Virus record (IMG/VR): IMGVR_UViG_3300015360_000029 | Location: 23,460 to 87,459 of that record | DNA from: a virus | DNA length: 64,000 nucleotides | Strand: one strand, 5' to 3' | Part shown: positions 13,670-45,885 of the stretch, piece by piece | How positions within the stretch are numbered: position 1 is the stretch's first letter | Layout of the letters: each line of letters begins with the position of its first letter | Program-made: the position numbers and the translations under genes | Notes under the pieces: model-generated | Databases searched by the model: none | Seen by the model: the letters and a program-made list of their open reading frames with translations, nothing else | Told to the model about the DNA's origin: nothing

Positions 13670-14038
13670 TTATGAAGAGCGATCCATAGCATTCTCGAGC
13701 TTAGCAATTCCGCTCATAAGCACTTCCATTTCTTTTTCAAGAACTTTCAAGTCATCGTCAGCCCGACTATCATATTGATCCCCAGACCGTGATCTTTGTG
13801 AATGATATTGATTTTTCCGTTCTACATCAATCCGTTGTTGAAGCTCTTCTTTTTTAGACAGTGCTTGATCGATCTTTGTTTGTAAAGAAGATTTAAGCAT
13901 GTTCTCACCGTCTTCAACCAGACCAGTAACTTCACGTGTCTTCGCAACGAAGTACTCGTGCATCGTAACAGCAGCTTGCTCTTGACGATCGTTGATGATG
14001 TCTTGAAGCATTGCCTTCAGTGTTTCTTTATTGCTCAT
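13670..14038 (-). CDS. paralogous prohead-core-like protein, copy 1
   Basis: A 122-aa protein whose first 45 residues (LKAMLQDIINDRQEQAAVTM, then HEYFVAKTREVTGLVE) are almost identical to the proteins at 41776-42264 and 32143-32328. The rest is a charged coiled coil (KKEELQQRIDVERK...). The third copy lies inside the capsid cluster, which suggests a prohead-core or internal role for the family. ATG follows TAGGAG and a perfect late box at 14062. Function otherwise unknown. Confidence 0.7.
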   Translation of the reverse strand: MSNKETLKAMLQDIINDRQEQAAVTMHEYFVAKTREVTGLVEDGENMLKSSLQTKIDQALSKKEELQQRIDVERKNQYHSQRSRSGDQYDSRADDDLKVLEKEMEVLMSGIAKLENAMDRSS

Positions 14039-39691: not shown

Positions 39692-41344
39692 ATGAAAATT
39701 TATCAAGGGGCAGAACTTTCCCGCGATCCACTGGTGGATATGGAAGCTGCTACAAAACGATACGTTGACAATCAGATCACAGGATCTGCCGTCGTCGGTG
39801 GCTTGTTCTTCACGAACATCACCCCCACTTCTTCTGGCATCGTCGGAAGCAAAGCATATGTATCTGGTACAGTCCCAACGAATACTGTAATTACCGAAGG
39901 AACTGCCGATACCGACAACGTGACAGTCACGTTGTACGCTGAAGGTGGTTCAGCTTTTTTCTCTCCGACAATCACAATTACCACAGTGCCAGCACAAGGT
40001 AGCGGTCCAATCGTTGCTACTCTCACAGTCCCATCGCCTGGCGATCGAGTATTCACTGCAACAGCTGCTCTTACAGGCATCACAGCTGACACAATTGTTT
40101 CGGCTGTTTCAACAACGAACGCAACTGCTTCAGCAACCGTTCGACGTGCTGCAGCTGGCCCAACGATCACTCTGCTGACAATTGGTTCTTTGCCAGGTTC
40201 ACAGACCGAAGTCAAGAGCGGCGACGTGGTGCCTGTTACGGGCACAGTACAGAATACAGCTACGTACTTTGAAATCATTTCAAGTGGCGCTTCCGGATCG
40301 ATCTCGGTTCTTTCACTTGGAGCAGCTAATTCTGGTGGCGCAGGCTTCAAGACTGTCAGCGGCACTTTCGTTGTCAGCGGATTGTCAGGATCACAATCTG
40401 TTAGCGGCCGTGCTCAGAACGCACTTGGTACTTTCGGTTCAACATTACAATCATCGAATTCGATAACGCTGAATCAAACATTCCCATCAATCGGCGCTCG
40501 CACGATCACGTACCCAGCAACTCAGTCTGGTCTGAAGAATACAGAAACGGCAACAATCGCATCAACTGTTACGAATTTCGACACGATCGTATATGCTGGA
40601 ACTGGAATTATTGTTTCAGCCTCGACAACTTACGGTGCTACAAAAACGGTAACGCTGAACTCCACTGGATACGTGTTCGGGACGAACAACTACACGATCA
40701 CAGCCACTAAAGCTTCGAACGGTGCGGTTTCAACAGCTTCTTCAGCAATCACTATTGCAACGACAGCCCCAACAGCCGCCATTACGTACACGCCGGCTGG
40801 CCGGATGGCTTCTTCAGCAGCAGGCGTGAGTCACACTGTCACTATCACTGCATCCCAACGTCTGAATGTCGCACCTTCAATGGTCGCTTCGTCTGGCACT
40901 TGGCAGGGTTCATGGACTCAAGGCGCGAACTCGTCTATCTGGACGCGCGTTCTGTTGATCGCCGATTCTGCTCCAAAGGGTTCGCAAACATTCAACACGT
41001 TGTCATTGACGAACTTGGCGAACGTTGCTGGTTCAACTATCACTTCAGGTTCTGCTTACACAGTCGGTGGCTTTGTTTCGCGCACGATCACGTTCCCGGC
41101 ATTCGCACGGTTCACAGCGATTGGAACGAACATTGTTGACATCACGAAAGTTACAGCCTCGTACACAGGCGGTTCAGTCTTGTCTCGACAGACATCTACA
41201 GTAGATGTGTTCCAAGGGTTCACGATCGTAGACATCAACGGGGATTACAGCGCAACCGGTGCGTATCTCTTCATTTCTGACTCGGCATTCGCTGGCTCGA
41301 ATACTTCAGGCACATTACAGCTTGACATCGCGGAGGCTGCATAA
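39692..41344 (+). CDS. fibre-like protein with multiple beta/Ig-like domains
   Basis: A 550-aa protein. The N-terminus DPLVDMEAATKRYVDNQI is the A-T-K-x-Y-V-D attachment motif also found in the giant fibre at 57891. The rest is a chain of Ser/Thr/Val-rich beta domains, each about 85-95 aa, with Ig-like patterns. There are no Cys. Such proteins decorate capsids or form whiskers and fibres. TAATG overlap with the next gene suggests a complex. Confidence 0.65.
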   Translation: MKIYQGAELSRDPLVDMEAATKRYVDNQITGSAVVGGLFFTNITPTSSGIVGSKAYVSGTVPTNTVITEGTADTDNVTVTLYAEGGSAFFSPTITITTVPAQGSGPIVATLTVPSPGDRVFTATAALTGITADTIVSAVSTTNATASATVRRAAAGPTITLLTIGSLPGSQTEVKSGDVVPVTGTVQNTATYFEIISSGASGSISVLSLGAANSGGAGFKTVSGTFVVSGLSGSQSVSGRAQNALGTFGSTLQSSNSITLNQTFPSIGARTITYPATQSGLKNTETATIASTVTNFDTIVYAGTGIIVSASTTYGATKTVTLNSTGYVFGTNNYTITATKASNGAVSTASSAITIATTAPTAAITYTPAGRMASSAAGVSHTVTITASQRLNVAPSMVASSGTWQGSWTQGANSSIWTRVLLIADSAPKGSQTFNTLSLTNLANVAGSTITSGSAYTVGGFVSRTITFPAFARFTAIGTNIVDITKVTASYTGGSVLSRQTSTVDVFQGFTIVDINGDYSATGAYLFISDSAFAGSNTSGTLQLDIAEAA

Positions 41345-41766
41345 TGAGCGCTTTTGAGGACTTCGTCCAAACAGAACTTCCAAAGCGTCCGTATCTGAAT
41401 GCTGACGTAAGTCAGGAAACGATGATCATCAGGCGCGGTGCTGGTCCGCGCCAACTAGCTGCGATCACTTTCACAGAAGGTCAGATCCTTGTGATGAGTT
41501 CAGGTGTTTTGACACCTATGACCCTTTCGCAGATCGCAGGGATGTTCGGTGGCGGACTCAGAAGCTATGTACTCGCAGTTCCAATCGCTTCACAAACTTG
41601 GACTGTAACACACAATTTGAATTCTGAGAACGTGATCGTTCAAGCATTCGATGAAAGCAAATTCGTTGTGTTCCCGAATACAATCCAAATTGTAAGTGCA
41701 AACGTTGTTCAACTGACATTCAACACTGCGCAAGCCGGCGTGGCACGAGTCGTCTTCCTCGATTAA
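41344..41766 (+). CDS. small tail/fibre-associated protein
   Basis: A 140-aa protein. N-terminal MSAFEDFVQTELPKRP is followed by I-I-R-R-G-A-G-P-R-Q-L. The C-terminal 70 residues (SQTWTVTHNLNSENVIVQAF, then NVVQLTFNTAQAGVARVVFL) are the same beta domain as at the end of 27763-28632, common in phage tail proteins. It probably caps or attaches the preceding fibre-like protein. Confidence 0.65.
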   Translation: MSAFEDFVQTELPKRPYLNADVSQETMIIRRGAGPRQLAAITFTEGQILVMSSGVLTPMTLSQIAGMFGGGLRSYVLAVPIASQTWTVTHNLNSENVIVQAFDESKFVVFPNTIQIVSANVVQLTFNTAQAGVARVVFLD

Positions 41767-41775
41767 GGGAACTTT

Positions 41776-42264
41776 ATGTCACATCTTCTCAAATCGATGC
41801 TTCAAGACATCATCAATGATCGTCACGAGCAAGCTGCTGTTACGATGCACGAGTACTTCGTTGCGAAGACACGTGAAGTTACTGGTCTTGTTGAAGCTGA
41901 ACTATCCGAAGACGAAGTCGAAGACATTCTTGAATCGGCTGAAGATGAAGAACTTGACGAAGCACTTCGAGCTGGATTTGCAGGAGCAAGAAATTCAAGC
42001 GGCGAAAGAGAGATCGCATTGCCTGTTGGCACTGCTGAGCGTCAAAAACTTGCTAAACAAATCAAAGACAACCGTTCTGACAACAGAGATCCGAACTCCC
42101 GCGGTGCAGCAAATGATGCACAAAAAATGGAGCGTGAACCAGGAGAATCCGCTGGTGACTTCATGAAGCGAAAAGCTGCACTTTTGGCGAAGCGACATGG
42201 TGCAGCATCAGGAATGCAACGAGATTCTGGCGGCATCAGAGCAGATCTACGTCAGCATCCTTGA
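41776..42264 (+). CDS. paralogous prohead-core-like protein, copy 3
   Basis: A 162-aa protein. The first 45 residues (LLKSMLQDIINDRHEQAAVT...) are nearly identical in protein and DNA to 13670-14038. A very acidic stretch (ELSEDEVEDILESAEDEELD) follows, then a basic, Gln/Arg-rich, probably disordered tail. The acidic block resembles T4 core protein gp67 in composition only. It ends at the inverted copy of the terminator found beside its paralogue. Confidence 0.65.
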   Translation: MSHLLKSMLQDIINDRHEQAAVTMHEYFVAKTREVTGLVEAELSEDEVEDILESAEDEELDEALRAGFAGARNSSGEREIALPVGTAERQKLAKQIKDNRSDNRDPNSRGAANDAQKMEREPGESAGDFMKRKAALLAKRHGAASGMQRDSGGIRADLRQHP

Positions 42265-42296: not shown

Positions 42297-42345
42297 AATG
42301 GGAGCCAATTGGCTCCCATTCCTTATTCAGCACCTAATGCTGTAT
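42297..42345. terminator. bidirectional terminator, inverted copy of 13615-13663
   Basis: AATGGGAGCC/GGCTCCCATT stem with a 4-nt AATT loop, then CAGCA/TGCTG hairpin. Separates the converging core-like and kinase genes. Confidence 0.8.
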
Positions 42346-42890
42346 TATGCGCGCATAATGAATTCAGCGCACTTGTCCATCAAGATACCTCGACCAGGTG
42401 TTTCAAGACTTGGTGTGTCGCGGTCGTCGCGGAACAGCACTTGATGATTCGGTCCGTACTTCAAGTACTCGTCGATGCCAGCATTGAACTGCTCGATCGT
42501 CAAGCTGATCCGATCGTCGATGAACTCGGTCTGGATATGCGGACGAGTGACGAACACTTCCATCACATCGAACCGCCGCTTGAACTCAGCGTAATACTGG
42601 CGCGATAGTGCGACGTCCTCGCCTCGAAGAACTTTGTCGTACACGAGGTTCGAGACGATAAATCGATCGAGCAAGTACGTCTTGGTTTTGTCGAGCAAGT
42701 CGAACATCGTGAACAGAATCTCGAAGTCCTTTTCGGTGTTCATTCGAAGCAACGTGCCGGATGGCATTGTCTTCGGGAACTTTACTTCGACTGCACGCGG
42801 CCACAAGTCACGAGCTAAGTCTTTCAGCATCGTCGACTTCCCGCAGTTGTCCATGCCGTCGAACACGATGAACTTAGTTTTGACGGACAC
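42345..42890 (-). CDS. P-loop deoxynucleoside monophosphate kinase-like
   Basis: A 181-aa protein. Walker A DGMDNCGKST (11-20) and L-L-D-R-F-I-V-S-N-L-V-Y (the D-R-x lid region) match thymidylate/deoxynucleotide kinases. In the hydroxymethylase cassette it probably phosphorylates the modified dCMP, the role T4 gp1 plays, though gp1 differs in sequence. GTG at 42890 gives a 17-bp overlap with the previous gene; a TTG further upstream is less likely. Confidence 0.7.
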   Translation of the reverse strand: MSVKTKFIVFDGMDNCGKSTMLKDLARDLWPRAVEVKFPKTMPSGTLLRMNTEKDFEILFTMFDLLDKTKTYLLDRFIVSNLVYDKVLRGEDVALSRQYYAEFKRRFDVMEVFVTRPHIQTEFIDDRISLTIEQFNAGIDEYLKYGPNHQVLFRDDRDTPSLETPGRGILMDKCAEFIMRA

Positions 42891-43920
42891 TGATGAACTC
42901 CCTGTTGTAGTACGAATCGTTCTCAAGGGCGCGATACACGAACTGCCGAACTTGAGTGTCTATGACATTATAACTCAAGTCTTCAATGGCCTTACGAAGC
43001 CATCTTAGGTCTGGGATCGTGTTCTCATTGTCGTAGATCTTCGAGGTGTACGTAATGACTGGGCAGCGATAATGAAAGAACTCGATCGTGCCTGGGTGAA
43101 GAACGGTATCCATGTCATCAAGCATCACGATCAGCGGACGCGCAGCCAACATCTGATAGTACTCACTCTTTGACAGCTTCTTCGACATCACGAACGACTT
43201 GTCGCACTCGAGAGTATCGTTCGGGTCAGTGCAAAAGATCAAGTATCCTTCATCATGAAGACCTTGCGCTTCGAACGCTTCGAGGAACTGTTCCCACTGG
43301 TACGCTTTGTCGGAGATTCGAAACGGCCAGAACACCAGCTTTTCGGCCTTGTTCGTCTTGTCGAACTTCGGGAGAAGCGATTCATGAGCGCACTTCGAAT
43401 TGACGATCACCTTGTCGAGCAGATCAGGCCGAACTTCCAGAATGTATTCGCGCTGTCGCGGGTTCAGCACGGTTGTGAACAAGCTTTGCTCGATCGACTT
43501 CAGGTCTTGCTCGAAGAACTTGTCGATGTACGGACGATCAAGTTCTGGAAGTTTCGTGATGTTGAAGTTGTACACCACTGGCAATTGACCAGTGTACCCA
43601 GTCACATCTGAGATTACGATGTCGAACCACGACTCAGCGAAGTCCATCTCGGTCGAGTTCTTCGACCAGAACTGCTCACGAGTCTGAACCGCGTTCAAAC
43701 CGTAATCCATCTCCTTGAATTGAATGTGCGAGCGACCCTCGAACTTCAACTTCAGTTCGTCGAGATCCGATGAGTCTCGTGGGACCGCGATCGAGATCTG
43801 GTCGAAGTCAGATGCGAGGACACGAGCCATCGCGAGCTGAAAGTTCCCGTCCTTCAGGATCGAGTACTTCCCAGTATCGTAAGACCGCATCGAGAAAATC
43901 GGAATCCAGAGAACTCTCAT
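42874..43920 (-). CDS. glycosyltransferase-like protein (GT-B type)
   Basis: A 348-aa protein. The start VLWIPIFSMRSYDTGKYSIL, a central linker, and a C-terminal Rossmann-like half (L-I-F-C-T-D-P-N-D-T, A-R-P-L-I-V-M-L-D-D, HPGTIEFFHYRCPVITY) suggest a GT-B fold, with E in H-P-G-T-I-E-F-F as the usual nucleotide-sugar contact. ATGA overlap with the hydroxymethylase gene suggests that it glycosylates hydroxymethyl-dC in DNA, as T4 alpha/beta-GT do. Fold and role are inferred. Confidence 0.45.
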   Translation of the reverse strand: MRVLWIPIFSMRSYDTGKYSILKDGNFQLAMARVLASDFDQISIAVPRDSSDLDELKLKFEGRSHIQFKEMDYGLNAVQTREQFWSKNSTEMDFAESWFDIVISDVTGYTGQLPVVYNFNITKLPELDRPYIDKFFEQDLKSIEQSLFTTVLNPRQREYILEVRPDLLDKVIVNSKCAHESLLPKFDKTNKAEKLVFWPFRISDKAYQWEQFLEAFEAQGLHDEGYLIFCTDPNDTLECDKSFVMSKKLSKSEYYQMLAARPLIVMLDDMDTVLHPGTIEFFHYRCPVITYTSKIYDNENTIPDLRWLRKAIEDLSYNVIDTQVRQFVYRALENDSYYNREFISVRQN

Positions 43921-44618
43921 TGCAGGAACTCGCTGATGTACTTGAAGTCACGTTCGAAGACATGCCCGTTGTGCATCGTCACGTGGTATTCTGTGTTTTC
44001 GTGAGCGATGCCGAGTTCATCGGCGATCTTGTGAAGCAACTTGATCTGAAGATAGATGTCAAGCTGAAGAACAACGGCGATGTTCTGCGAACGCATCGTC
44101 GTGCTCATGATCAACTTCCCGCTGCGAATCTGGAAGTTGAACGAGATCGTGCACGGGAACTCGAGCGTCTCGTCCTTGTCCAGAAGCTGAAGGTCGTTCG
44201 CATCGAGGATCATCATCGTCGCACGACGGGTCGTCGGCGTTCGCTTCAGCTCAGCGACGATCGAATCGTATTGCTTCGCGATCCGCGGACCGTAGAACGT
44301 GTTGAAGTTCGCTGGGAGCGCATCGCTCTTCGGCTTCGTCAGGAACTTCGCAACACCAGGATAGTCCTTCAGCGCTTCTTGCGCATCAGTCCCGCCGGAG
44401 ATCATGAACTGCCAGAACGTCTCAGCGTAATCGTATCCGATTCGATTGATTCGAGGATCTGTGAACTTGTAGTCTAGCGTCGAAGTGGAGCTAGCTTGAA
44501 CGTCGATCAGTTCGCGAGCCTTTCCGATTCGAGTGTCAGATTCATGATCCGGATGATTCATCGCAAGCTCGTTCAACAGCTTGAACAGCTGCTCCATTGA
44601 CTTCGTTTCGATTCTCAT
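43917..44618 (-). CDS. 42: deoxycytidylate hydroxymethylase-like (T4 gp42 family)
   Basis: A 233-aa thymidylate synthase homologue (T4 gp42 is 246 aa). It has N-T-F-Y-G-P, R131-R132, EFPCTISFNFQI with catalytic C156, and MRSQN with R176. At the position where thymidylate synthases have Asn (N177 of E. coli) it has D187 (Q-L-D-I-Y), as in T4 gp42 (N-D-Y), which marks dCMP rather than dUMP specificity. It would make hydroxymethyl-dCMP using methylene-tetrahydrofolate. dCMP methylation remains possible. GGAG precedes ATG. Confidence 0.8.
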   Translation of the reverse strand: MRIETKSMEQLFKLLNELAMNHPDHESDTRIGKARELIDVQASSTSTLDYKFTDPRINRIGYDYAETFWQFMISGGTDAQEALKDYPGVAKFLTKPKSDALPANFNTFYGPRIAKQYDSIVAELKRTPTTRRATMMILDANDLQLLDKDETLEFPCTISFNFQIRSGKLIMSTTMRSQNIAVVLQLDIYLQIKLLHKIADELGIAHENTEYHVTMHNGHVFERDFKYISEFLQ

Positions 44619-44627
44619 TTGTTCTCC

Positions 44628-45122
44628 TTAGATTTCTTGACCAGCGCGGAATGCGAGATCGAGGTACGCTTCAGCTAGTTCAGGCGAGAGGCGGGGTCCA
44701 ACGTTGTCGAACACATAGAACGTTGAGCGAAGACCACAGTACGTCATCGCTTCGGACATGTTCTTCGTGTTGTATTCCTTTTGCTGTCCCATACTCAAAA
44801 GACAGGTCGCATCCTTCCAGAACTTAGGCTTCATTTTATCTCCTTCAAGATCGAACGCGAACCCCTTGACGAAGTTCGTTTGGAGATAATTCACGAGGAT
44901 CGCTGGTGGCATCTCCCACCATACTGGGTACGCGAAGCTGATGTGATCAGCATTCAAAATTAAACCTTGATGATCAAGTGTGGAAGTTTCTGGATTGTAC
45001 AGGTTGTACGAGAAAACAGTATGCCCAGCATAGTGTGCGCCGCCTCTGAACTTTGTGGCGAGCCGTCCTATGAATGAAGATTGAGACAAGTCTGGGTGAG
45101 CAAAGATTTGAAGTACGTTCAT
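44628..45122 (-). CDS. flavodoxin-fold NAD(P)H oxidoreductase-like
   Basis: A 164-aa protein. MNVLQIFAHPDLSQSSF, then A-G-H-T-V-F-S-Y-N-L-Y, A-D-H-I-S-F-A-Y-P-V-W-W-E-M-P-P-A and K-G-F-A-F match the Flavodoxin_2/quinone reductase family, which binds FMN or FAD. It is first gene of the modification cassette, 9 nt before the hydroxymethylase. Its substrate there is unknown. ATG at 45122 begins the conserved strand; a TTG four codons upstream is less likely. Confidence 0.75.
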   Translation of the reverse strand: MNVLQIFAHPDLSQSSFIGRLATKFRGGAHYAGHTVFSYNLYNPETSTLDHQGLILNADHISFAYPVWWEMPPAILVNYLQTNFVKGFAFDLEGDKMKPKFWKDATCLLSMGQQKEYNTKNMSEAMTYCGLRSTFYVFDNVGPRLSPELAEAYLDLAFRAGQEI

Positions 45123-45149
45123 ACAGTCCAATAAATAACAGTAAGATTG

Positions 45150-45173
45150 ATTGTAACAAACCCTTTGGGTTTG
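45150..45173 (-). promoter_or_regulatory. extended -10 promoter with overlapping palindrome
   Basis: TGTTACAAT (45150-45158) on the minus strand, directly preceded by palindrome CAAACCC/GGGTTTG (45157-45173) that fills the spacer. A repressor or activator site is likely. It serves the modification operon. Confidence 0.55.
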
Positions 45174-45291: not shown

Positions 45292-45885
45292 ATGGCAACA
45301 CTCAGTAACTTCGGCATCCCAGGTGCCGGTGCAGGTATTCTGCATCCACGCCTGAAGAACAAGTTCCGTATCACGTTCTTGAACATGGGCCAACTTGTCC
45401 CGGGTACGAACTCGCGGAATCTCACTATGCAGGTTACGAATATCACTCTCCCGAATTTGACATTCGAAGAAGTTATTCTACATCGATATAACTCGACGGC
45501 TTACGTTGCTGGGAAGCACTCGTGGGAACCAATCAGCGTCACAGTTGAAGACGACATCACAGGTCTCGCGGCTACAGTTGTCAAGGGTCAACTTGAAACT
45601 CAGCAGCGCATCATTGGTTCCGATCTCGATGGTCGTTGGTTGAACACAGCCGCGACTGGTTCGGACTACAAGTTCGGTGTGAAGATCGACCAGCTTGACG
45701 GTGACGAAGGCGTCGTTCAGACTTGGATCCTCGAAGGTGCAATGATGACTTCTGCTGACTTTGGCGATCGTGACTATTCGGCTTCAGAAGCAGCAACGAT
45801 CACAATGAACATCCGGTACGACCACGCCCGCCATATCGAGTCTGGTTCTGGATACGGTACAGCTCTGGGCGGTAACGTAGCTTGA
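45292..45885 (+). CDS. 19: tail tube protein gp19
   Basis: A 197-aa protein (T4 gp19 is 163 aa). RLKNKFRITFLNMGQLVPG, then V-T-N-I-T-L-P-N-L-T-F-E-E-V, S-T-A-Y-V-A-G-K-H-S-W-E-P-I and I-L-E-G-A-M-M-T-S-A-D-F-G-D-R-D-Y match the T4-type tube family. It stacks in hexameric rings inside the sheath. Strong GGAG ribosome site, and a strong terminator directly after the gene, as expected for a highly made virion protein. Confidence 0.9.
   Translation: MATLSNFGIPGAGAGILHPRLKNKFRITFLNMGQLVPGTNSRNLTMQVTNITLPNLTFEEVILHRYNSTAYVAGKHSWEPISVTVEDDITGLAATVVKGQLETQQRIIGSDLDGRWLNTAATGSDYKFGVKIDQLDGDEGVVQTWILEGAMMTSADFGDRDYSASEAATITMNIRYDHARHIESGSGYGTALGGNVA

What the first reader, a model, noticed from the sequence alone, without database searches (positions are those of the whole stretch)
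42345..45173. Four-gene cytosine modification cassette
A gp42-type enzyme with diagnostic D187, a GT-B-like protein and a P-loop deoxynucleotide kinase are in one coupled operon. This implies DNA with hydroxymethylcytosine, probably glycosylated, giving resistance to host restriction. The set is far more compact than in T4, where these genes are scattered.
Basis: partly seen in the sequence, partly recalled or inferred. Interest (0 to 1): 0.75.

Follow-up and report, generated by a model that had tools for sequence, protein, structure and literature searches.

The report
Phage cassette for sugar-capped 5-hydroxycytosine DNA
This bacterial virus carries a compact four-gene set that probably puts an oxygen, not a hydroxymethyl group, on cytosine and caps it with a sugar to protect its DNA, and it brings its own flavin-recycling enzyme to drive that step.

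Summary
The four genes are there, on the minus strand (42345-45122): NAD(P)H:flavin/quinone-reductase-like flavoprotein, thymidylate-synthase-fold enzyme, GT-B glycosyltransferase, dNMP-kinase-like protein. D187 is real. The hydroxymethylcytosine reading is not supported. The TS-fold enzyme belongs to the RB69-type family (54-55% identity), whose crystallised phage HY126 member is deposited as a riboflavin-dependent monooxygenase/dCMP hydroxylase with dCMP and FAD (9iqc, 9iqu); T4 gp42 is only 22% identical. 80 of 80 gp42-type enzymes keep the folate-contacting Asp (MRSND); this family has Asn there and no C-terminal folate cap. Expected product: 5-hydroxy-dCMP, then a sugar joined directly through the C5 oxygen. 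It directly precedes the hydroxylase in all relatives of this cassette type found; divergent phages carry another reductase family (FMN_red) within 6 kb; 0 of 50 gp42-type contigs carry either. I infer a self-contained two-component flavin monooxygenase. In enterobacterial phages a U32/chorismate-mutase (prephenate) pair sits there instead. The arabinose-donor genes of RB69 are missing from this partial 87-kb record and two related contigs, so the sugar is unknown. New variant of a recently described kind; chemistry in this phage untested.

The parts
44628..45122 (-). NAD(P)H:quinone/flavin-reductase-like flavoprotein (Flavodoxin_2); ORF opens at TTG 45131, likely start ATG 45122
   Evidence: Pfam PF02525 E 1.7e-16; NQO-type PDB relatives; directly upstream of the TS-fold gene in every relative found
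43917..44618 (-). TS-fold dCMP 5-hydroxylase (RB69ORF048c / AfhB-type), catalytic Cys156, dCMP-selecting Asp187, Asn179 in place of the folate Asp
   Evidence: 54-55% identity to RB69ORF048c and to PDB 9iqc 'Monooxygenase dependent on riboflavin with dCMP and FAD'; tree
42874..43920 (-). GT-B glycosyltransferase (phrog_3891), putative 5-hydroxycytosine glycosyltransferase
   Evidence: phrog_3891 E 3.7e-78; AlphaFold + Foldseek GT-B fold; homologue directly after the TS gene in RB69, LC53, Acj9
42345..42890 (-). P-loop deoxynucleoside-monophosphate-kinase-like protein (phrog_761), likely GTG start at 42890 (TTG 42926 possible)
   Evidence: phrog_761 E 1.3e-17; weak PF02223; third gene of the cassette in RB69, LC53, Acj9 and the window clade; start compared

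Best explanation
The cassette makes glycosylated 5-hydroxycytosine DNA. The TS-fold enzyme binds dCMP (Asp187), adds Cys156 to C6 and lets the resulting C5 nucleophile take an oxygen from a reduced-flavin/O2 adduct, giving 5-hydroxy-dCMP. The flavoprotein encoded directly upstream regenerates reduced flavin from NAD(P)H, so the pair works as a two-component flavin monooxygenase. The kinase starts phosphorylation of 5-hydroxy-dCMP towards the triphosphate. After (or before) incorporation the GT-B enzyme joins a sugar directly to the C5 oxygen. Shown here: homology, gene order, the association and its controls. From PDB deposit titles and papers: RB69-type enzymes hydroxylate dCMP and use flavin. 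Inferred: the reductase-hydroxylase partnership, kinase specificity, GT acceptor and timing, sugar identity, restriction resistance in this phage.
For: TS-fold enzyme 54-55% identical to RB69ORF048c and to 9iqc/9iqu, deposited as riboflavin-dependent monooxygenase with dCMP and FAD / phage HY126 dCMP hydroxylase. Literature: RB69-like phages carry 5-hydroxycytosine with arabinose linked at C5, made by a 5-hydroxy-dCMP synthase of the TS superfamily (PMC13390438). Asn at the folate Asp position in the family, Asp in 80/80 gp42-type enzymes. TS-GT-kinase order conserved. Flavoprotein adjacent in all members of this cassette type found; FMN_red (PF03358) within 6 kb of the TS gene in L028-L030 and L046-L051; reverse searches return 8/8 and 9/10 loci with the TS gene nearby; 0 of 50 gp42-type contigs have either reductase family. 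In L067/L068 the TS gene is replaced by a divergent homologue while flavoprotein, GT and kinase stay.
Against: No biochemistry for this phage. The window clade has lost residues that RB69-type enzymes share near the active-site strand pair (CTD..HxHMRS is CTI..STxMRS here), so product or efficiency could differ. Straboviridae and L010 have no phage reductase, so it is not obligatory. In the FMN_red loci the gene is near, mostly not adjacent, and those loci share ancestry, so the counts are not independent. The papers describing HY126 and RB69 biosynthesis were not held and could not be read.
Confidence: 0.75

Rival explanations
1. T4-like pathway: the TS-fold enzyme is a folate-dependent dCMP hydroxymethylase and the DNA carries glycosylated 5-hydroxymethylcytosine.
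For: TS fold, Cys156 and D187 shared with T4 gp42; many public records label close relatives 'dCMP hydroxymethylase'.
Against: 22% identity to T4 gp42, long separate branch; folate Asp replaced by Asn across the family, C-terminal cap missing; nearest solved structures are a flavin-dependent dCMP hydroxylase; RB69's earlier hmC reading was corrected to 5-hydroxycytosine (PMC13390438).
Confidence: 0.07
2. The window-clade enzyme has drifted from dCMP 5-hydroxylation to another C5 reaction or another pyrimidine nucleotide, and the flavoprotein serves that different reaction.
For: Window, L005-L010 and L040 have CTI..STxMRS where RB69-type and FMN_red-clade enzymes have CTD/CCD..HxHMRS.
Against: Cys156, Asn179 and D187 invariant; in L067/L068 a CTD..HTHMRSNN enzyme occupies the same cassette with the same partners, suggesting the two forms do the same job.
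Confidence: 0.12
3. The hydroxycytosine pathway is right, but the flavoprotein is a bystander (for example a quinone reductase against redox stress) that merely travels next to the hydroxylase, which uses host reductases.
For: RB69, LC53, Acj9 and L010 do without a phage reductase. Host flavin reductases are common.
Against: Fixed adjacency through TS replacement; a second reductase family near the same enzyme in another clade; none in 50 gp42-type contigs; no relative of the flavoprotein in 50,697 phage records.
Confidence: 0.2

Closest known systems
RB69 / HY126 (Mosigvirus) arabinosyl-5-hydroxycytosine pathway (AfhB-type dCMP hydroxylase)
   Same: Homologous TS-fold hydroxylase, GT and kinase in the same order; nearest structures 9iqc/9iqu
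   Different: Flavin reductase upstream where RB69 has a U32-family gene; no SIS or NTP-transferase sugar-donor genes found; CTI..STx pocket motif
Serratia phage LC53 (arabinosyl-hydroxy-cytosine, Mahler et al. 2025, cited in PMC12838424; paper itself not read)
   Same: TS-GT-kinase order
   Different: U32 peptidase-like and chorismate mutase genes upstream instead of the flavoprotein; sugar-donor genes present
T4 gene 42 / beta-gt hydroxymethylcytosine pathway
   Same: TS fold, dCMP-selecting Asp, GT-B glycosyltransferase logic
   Different: 22% identity; folate Asp and C-terminal tail absent here; no flavoprotein or kinase beside gene 42 in T4
Shewanella phage Thanatos pentose-cytosine modification (PMC12838424)
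   Same: TS-type gene plus sugar genes, modified cytosine, restriction resistance
   Different: No NTP-transferase gene like the sugar-activating ones of Thanatos found in the window record

Membership tests
T4 gp42 dCMP hydroxymethylase | Asp at the E. coli TS D169 position (pterin contact; MRSxD) | tested here: not met
   Asn179 (MRSQN) in window; Asn in all family relatives; Asp in 80/80 gp42-type loci
T4 gp42 dCMP hydroxymethylase | Asp at the E. coli TS N177 position (dCMP selection) | tested here: met
   D187; shared with the hydroxylase family, so not discriminating
T4 gp42 dCMP hydroxymethylase | Groups with gp42 sequences | tested here: not met
   Separate clade, long branch; 22% identity
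RB69/HY126-type dCMP 5-hydroxylase (AfhB) | Sequence and fold similarity to the characterised member | tested here: met
   54% identity, Foldseek rank 1-2, TM 0.82-0.83
RB69/HY126-type dCMP 5-hydroxylase (AfhB) | MRSQN motif, catalytic Cys, no C-terminal folate cap | tested here: met
RB69/HY126-type dCMP 5-hydroxylase (AfhB) | CTD..HxHMRS motif seen in RB69-type members (not known to be essential) | tested here: not met
   CTI..STTMRS in window; also absent in L005-L010, L040
RB69/HY126-type dCMP 5-hydroxylase (AfhB) | FAD binding and dCMP hydroxylation | not testable with these tools
   needs purified protein
Arabinosyl-5-hydroxycytosine system | Arabinose-donor genes (SIS isomerase, NTP transferase) | tested here: inconclusive
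   SIS absent from G000 and G001, NTP transferase absent from G000, G001, G016; present in RB69, LC53, L010, L030; records may be incomplete
Two-component flavin monooxygenase | Oxygenase plus separate NAD(P)H:flavin reductase encoded together | tested here: met
   Gene content and adjacency only; activity not tested
GT-B glycosyltransferases | GT-B fold | tested here: met

The most novel reading that the evidence does not exclude
A phage-encoded, self-contained two-component flavin monooxygenase acting on a nucleotide (TS-fold dCMP hydroxylase plus its own NAD(P)H:flavin reductase, recruited from two different reductase families in two clades), replaced in enterobacterial phages by a U32/chorismate-mutase, prephenate-linked and presumably O2-independent helper; and a sugar on 5-hydroxycytosine that is not phage-made arabinose.
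Probability: 0.45. Interest if true: 0.7.

Novelty: new variant of a known kind. Interest (0 to 1): 0.55.

Why it matters
It corrects a hydroxymethylcytosine call that public annotation repeats for many phages, and gives a simple sequence test (MRSxN against MRSxD) to tell 5-hydroxy from 5-hydroxymethyl pathways. If the reductase is the redox partner, the full reaction becomes testable with two small proteins, and the swap between flavin reductase and U32/prephenate helpers would link how a phage hydroxylates its DNA precursor to whether its host lives with or without oxygen.

Tried and rejected
hmC by a gp42 homologue: rejected on residues, tail, tree and structure hits. A His-His-Asp metal site (CTD..HxH) as the oxygen-activating centre: dropped, since the window clade lacks it while L067/L068 carry the other form in the same cassette. 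Search for SIS, NTP-transferase, U32 and chorismate mutase genes in the window record: none. Single-sequence viral scan with the GT: no confirmed hit, though BLAST found it next to the TS gene. TS family scan of 84,980 cellular genomes: no relatives. Papers for 9iqc/HY126/AfhB and the Lee et al. preprint: not held. tRNA scan empty. Pfam scans of 20 proteins of the related phage G001 gave no sugar or dCTPase gene.

Full report
WHAT IS THERE. The window (bases 23460-87459 of an 87,459-base IMG/VR virus record) carries four close-packed minus-strand genes between two plus-strand genes: an ORF at 41776-42264 and the tail tube gene at 45292 (phrog_4542). In transcription order they are a Flavodoxin_2 flavoprotein (PF02525, E 1.7e-16), a thymidylate-synthase-fold protein (PF00303, E 1.7e-10), a protein of phrog_3891 (E 3.7e-78) and a P-loop kinase-like protein of phrog_761 (E 1.3e-17). 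The TS and GT genes overlap by 4 bases; the TS gene has a good ribosome site (AAGGAGAACAAATG); the kinase probably starts at GTG 42890 inside the end of the GT gene, and the flavoprotein at ATG 45122.

THE ENZYME IS NOT A gp42-TYPE HYDROXYMETHYLASE. The TS-fold protein is about 49-56% identical to enzymes of RB69, LC53, Acj9 and other Straboviridae, and then identity falls to 23-34% for gp42-type and other phage enzymes. T4 gp42 is 22% identical and lies on a far branch. The discriminating position is two residues after MRS: the family members have Asn (N179; E. coli TS D169, which contacts the folate pterin by established TS knowledge), while 80 of 80 gp42-type loci have Asp. The family also stops soon after the HVFERD stretch and lacks the C-terminal segment that closes over folate in TS (role of that segment from general TS knowledge). 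Foldseek of the AlphaFold model (pLDDT 84.8) ranks first 9iqc, titled 'Monooxygenase dependent on riboflavin with dCMP and FAD', and second 9iqu, 'phage HY126 dCMP hydroxylase-AfhB'; by sequence these are nearly identical to RB69ORF048c. PMC13390438 states that RB69-like phages carry arabinose attached through an ether at C5 of 5-hydroxycytosine, made by a 5-hydroxy-dCMP synthase of the TS superfamily, and that the earlier hmC reading of RB69 was an error. The hmC inference therefore fails; glycosylated 5-hydroxycytosine replaces it.

THE OTHER GENES. The GT model (pLDDT 90.5) is GT-B, like retaining and plant UDP-sugar transferases and the HY126 glycosyltransferase 9ir0/9iqz. Its homologue follows the TS gene directly in RB69 (where the reading is split in the GenBank record), LC53 and Acj9, with the kinase next. 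RB69 also keeps gp1, the T4-type dNMP kinase, so the cassette kinase probably has a narrower task; that it acts on 5-hydroxy-dCMP is inference.

THE FLAVOPROTEIN. It was found directly upstream of the TS gene in L005, L006/L032, L007, L008, L009, L040 and L067/L068. A profile search of 2.9 million viral contigs returned 8 loci, all with the TS gene next to it, and no relative was found in 50,697 phage records. In another clade (L028-L030, L046-L051) a different reductase family, FMN_red, lies about 0.1-6 kb from the TS gene, usually as the only copy on the contig (two copies on L049/L050); the reverse search gives 9 of 10 contigs with the TS gene, L074 being the exception on a short contig. 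Neither reductase family occurs in 50 gp42-type contigs. As a raw count this is 17 of 18 against 0 of 50 (Fisher 4e-15), but the loci are related and the number must not be read as independent evidence; in effect it is two clades. L067/L068 are the most telling: there the TS gene is a divergent homologue (CTD..HTHMRSNN) while flavoprotein, GT and kinase remain. Since the crystallised relative binds FAD, a reductase encoded beside it is best read as its partner. This step is inferred.

A SECOND KIND OF PARTNER. In LC53 the two genes directly upstream of the TS gene are a Peptidase_U32 family protein (E 1.4e-11) and a type II chorismate mutase (E 1.7e-11). E. coli U32 proteins TrhP and RlhA are needed for prephenate-dependent 5-hydroxyuridine and 5-hydroxycytidine formation in RNA (PMC6599085), and UbiUV hydroxylate without O2 (PMC10470549). 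The phage U32 gene occurs in 218 phage records; the ten commonest genera listed are all enterobacterial and Acinetobacter, with 63 TS records, is not among them. It is absent from the window, from all reductase-bearing contigs tested, from the Acinetobacter phages tested, but also from an E. coli phage contig (G082). I could not find whether this is already described.

SUGAR. SIS isomerase and NTP-transferase genes, thought to make the arabinose donor in RB69 (PMC6024577), are present in RB69, LC53, L010 and L030; SIS was not found in G000 (87 kb) or G001 (135 kb), and NTP transferase not in G000, G001 or G016 (116 kb). These records may be incomplete. A host-supplied sugar nucleotide is possible.

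LIMITS. No biochemistry; metagenome virus without named host; the window clade differs from RB69-type enzymes at three positions near the active site; key papers not held. Verdict: real cassette, reinterpretation needed, new variant of a recently described pathway.

Noticed in passing
L003:2796-4306 (LC53), L002:4526-5931 (RB69): U32-peptidase-family gene and chorismate mutase gene directly upstream of the TS-fold hydroxylase in enterobacterial Straboviridae (mutase recognised in LC53, not in RB69's 79-aa ORF049c); suggests a prephenate-linked hydroxylation helper.
   Followed up: partly
L067:8297-9463: In a related phage the hydroxylase gene of the cassette is replaced by a longer divergent TS homologue while flavoprotein, GT and kinase are kept.
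   Followed up: partly
window 39692-41766: The large repeat-like gene and the small gene after it have paralogues at record positions 636-2782 on the other strand (54% and 50% identity), about 62 kb away.
   Followed up: no
window 41776-42264: ORF shares a 60-residue, 67% identical stretch with the ORF at window 13670-14038.
   Followed up: no
L008:2107-2823: An HNH/NUMOD3 homing-endonuclease-like gene sits between the TS-fold and GT genes of a close relative.
   Followed up: no
L054:5872-7682 and L055:5923-7795: Rhizobium/Agrobacterium Pootjesviridae phages pair an MRSQN-type TS homologue with a weak homologue of this GT, although one is annotated as deoxycytidylate hydroxymethyltransferase; they may also hydroxylate.
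   Followed up: partly
L064:15987-16547, L065:1467-2039: The related 135-kb phage G001 carries pieces of a bacterial DNA polymerase III alpha-type polymerase and no RB69-gp43 match was seen.
   Followed up: no
phages collection, hits: Many RB69-type hydroxylases are annotated as dCMP hydroxymethylase or thymidylate synthase; probably misannotations.
   Followed up: partly
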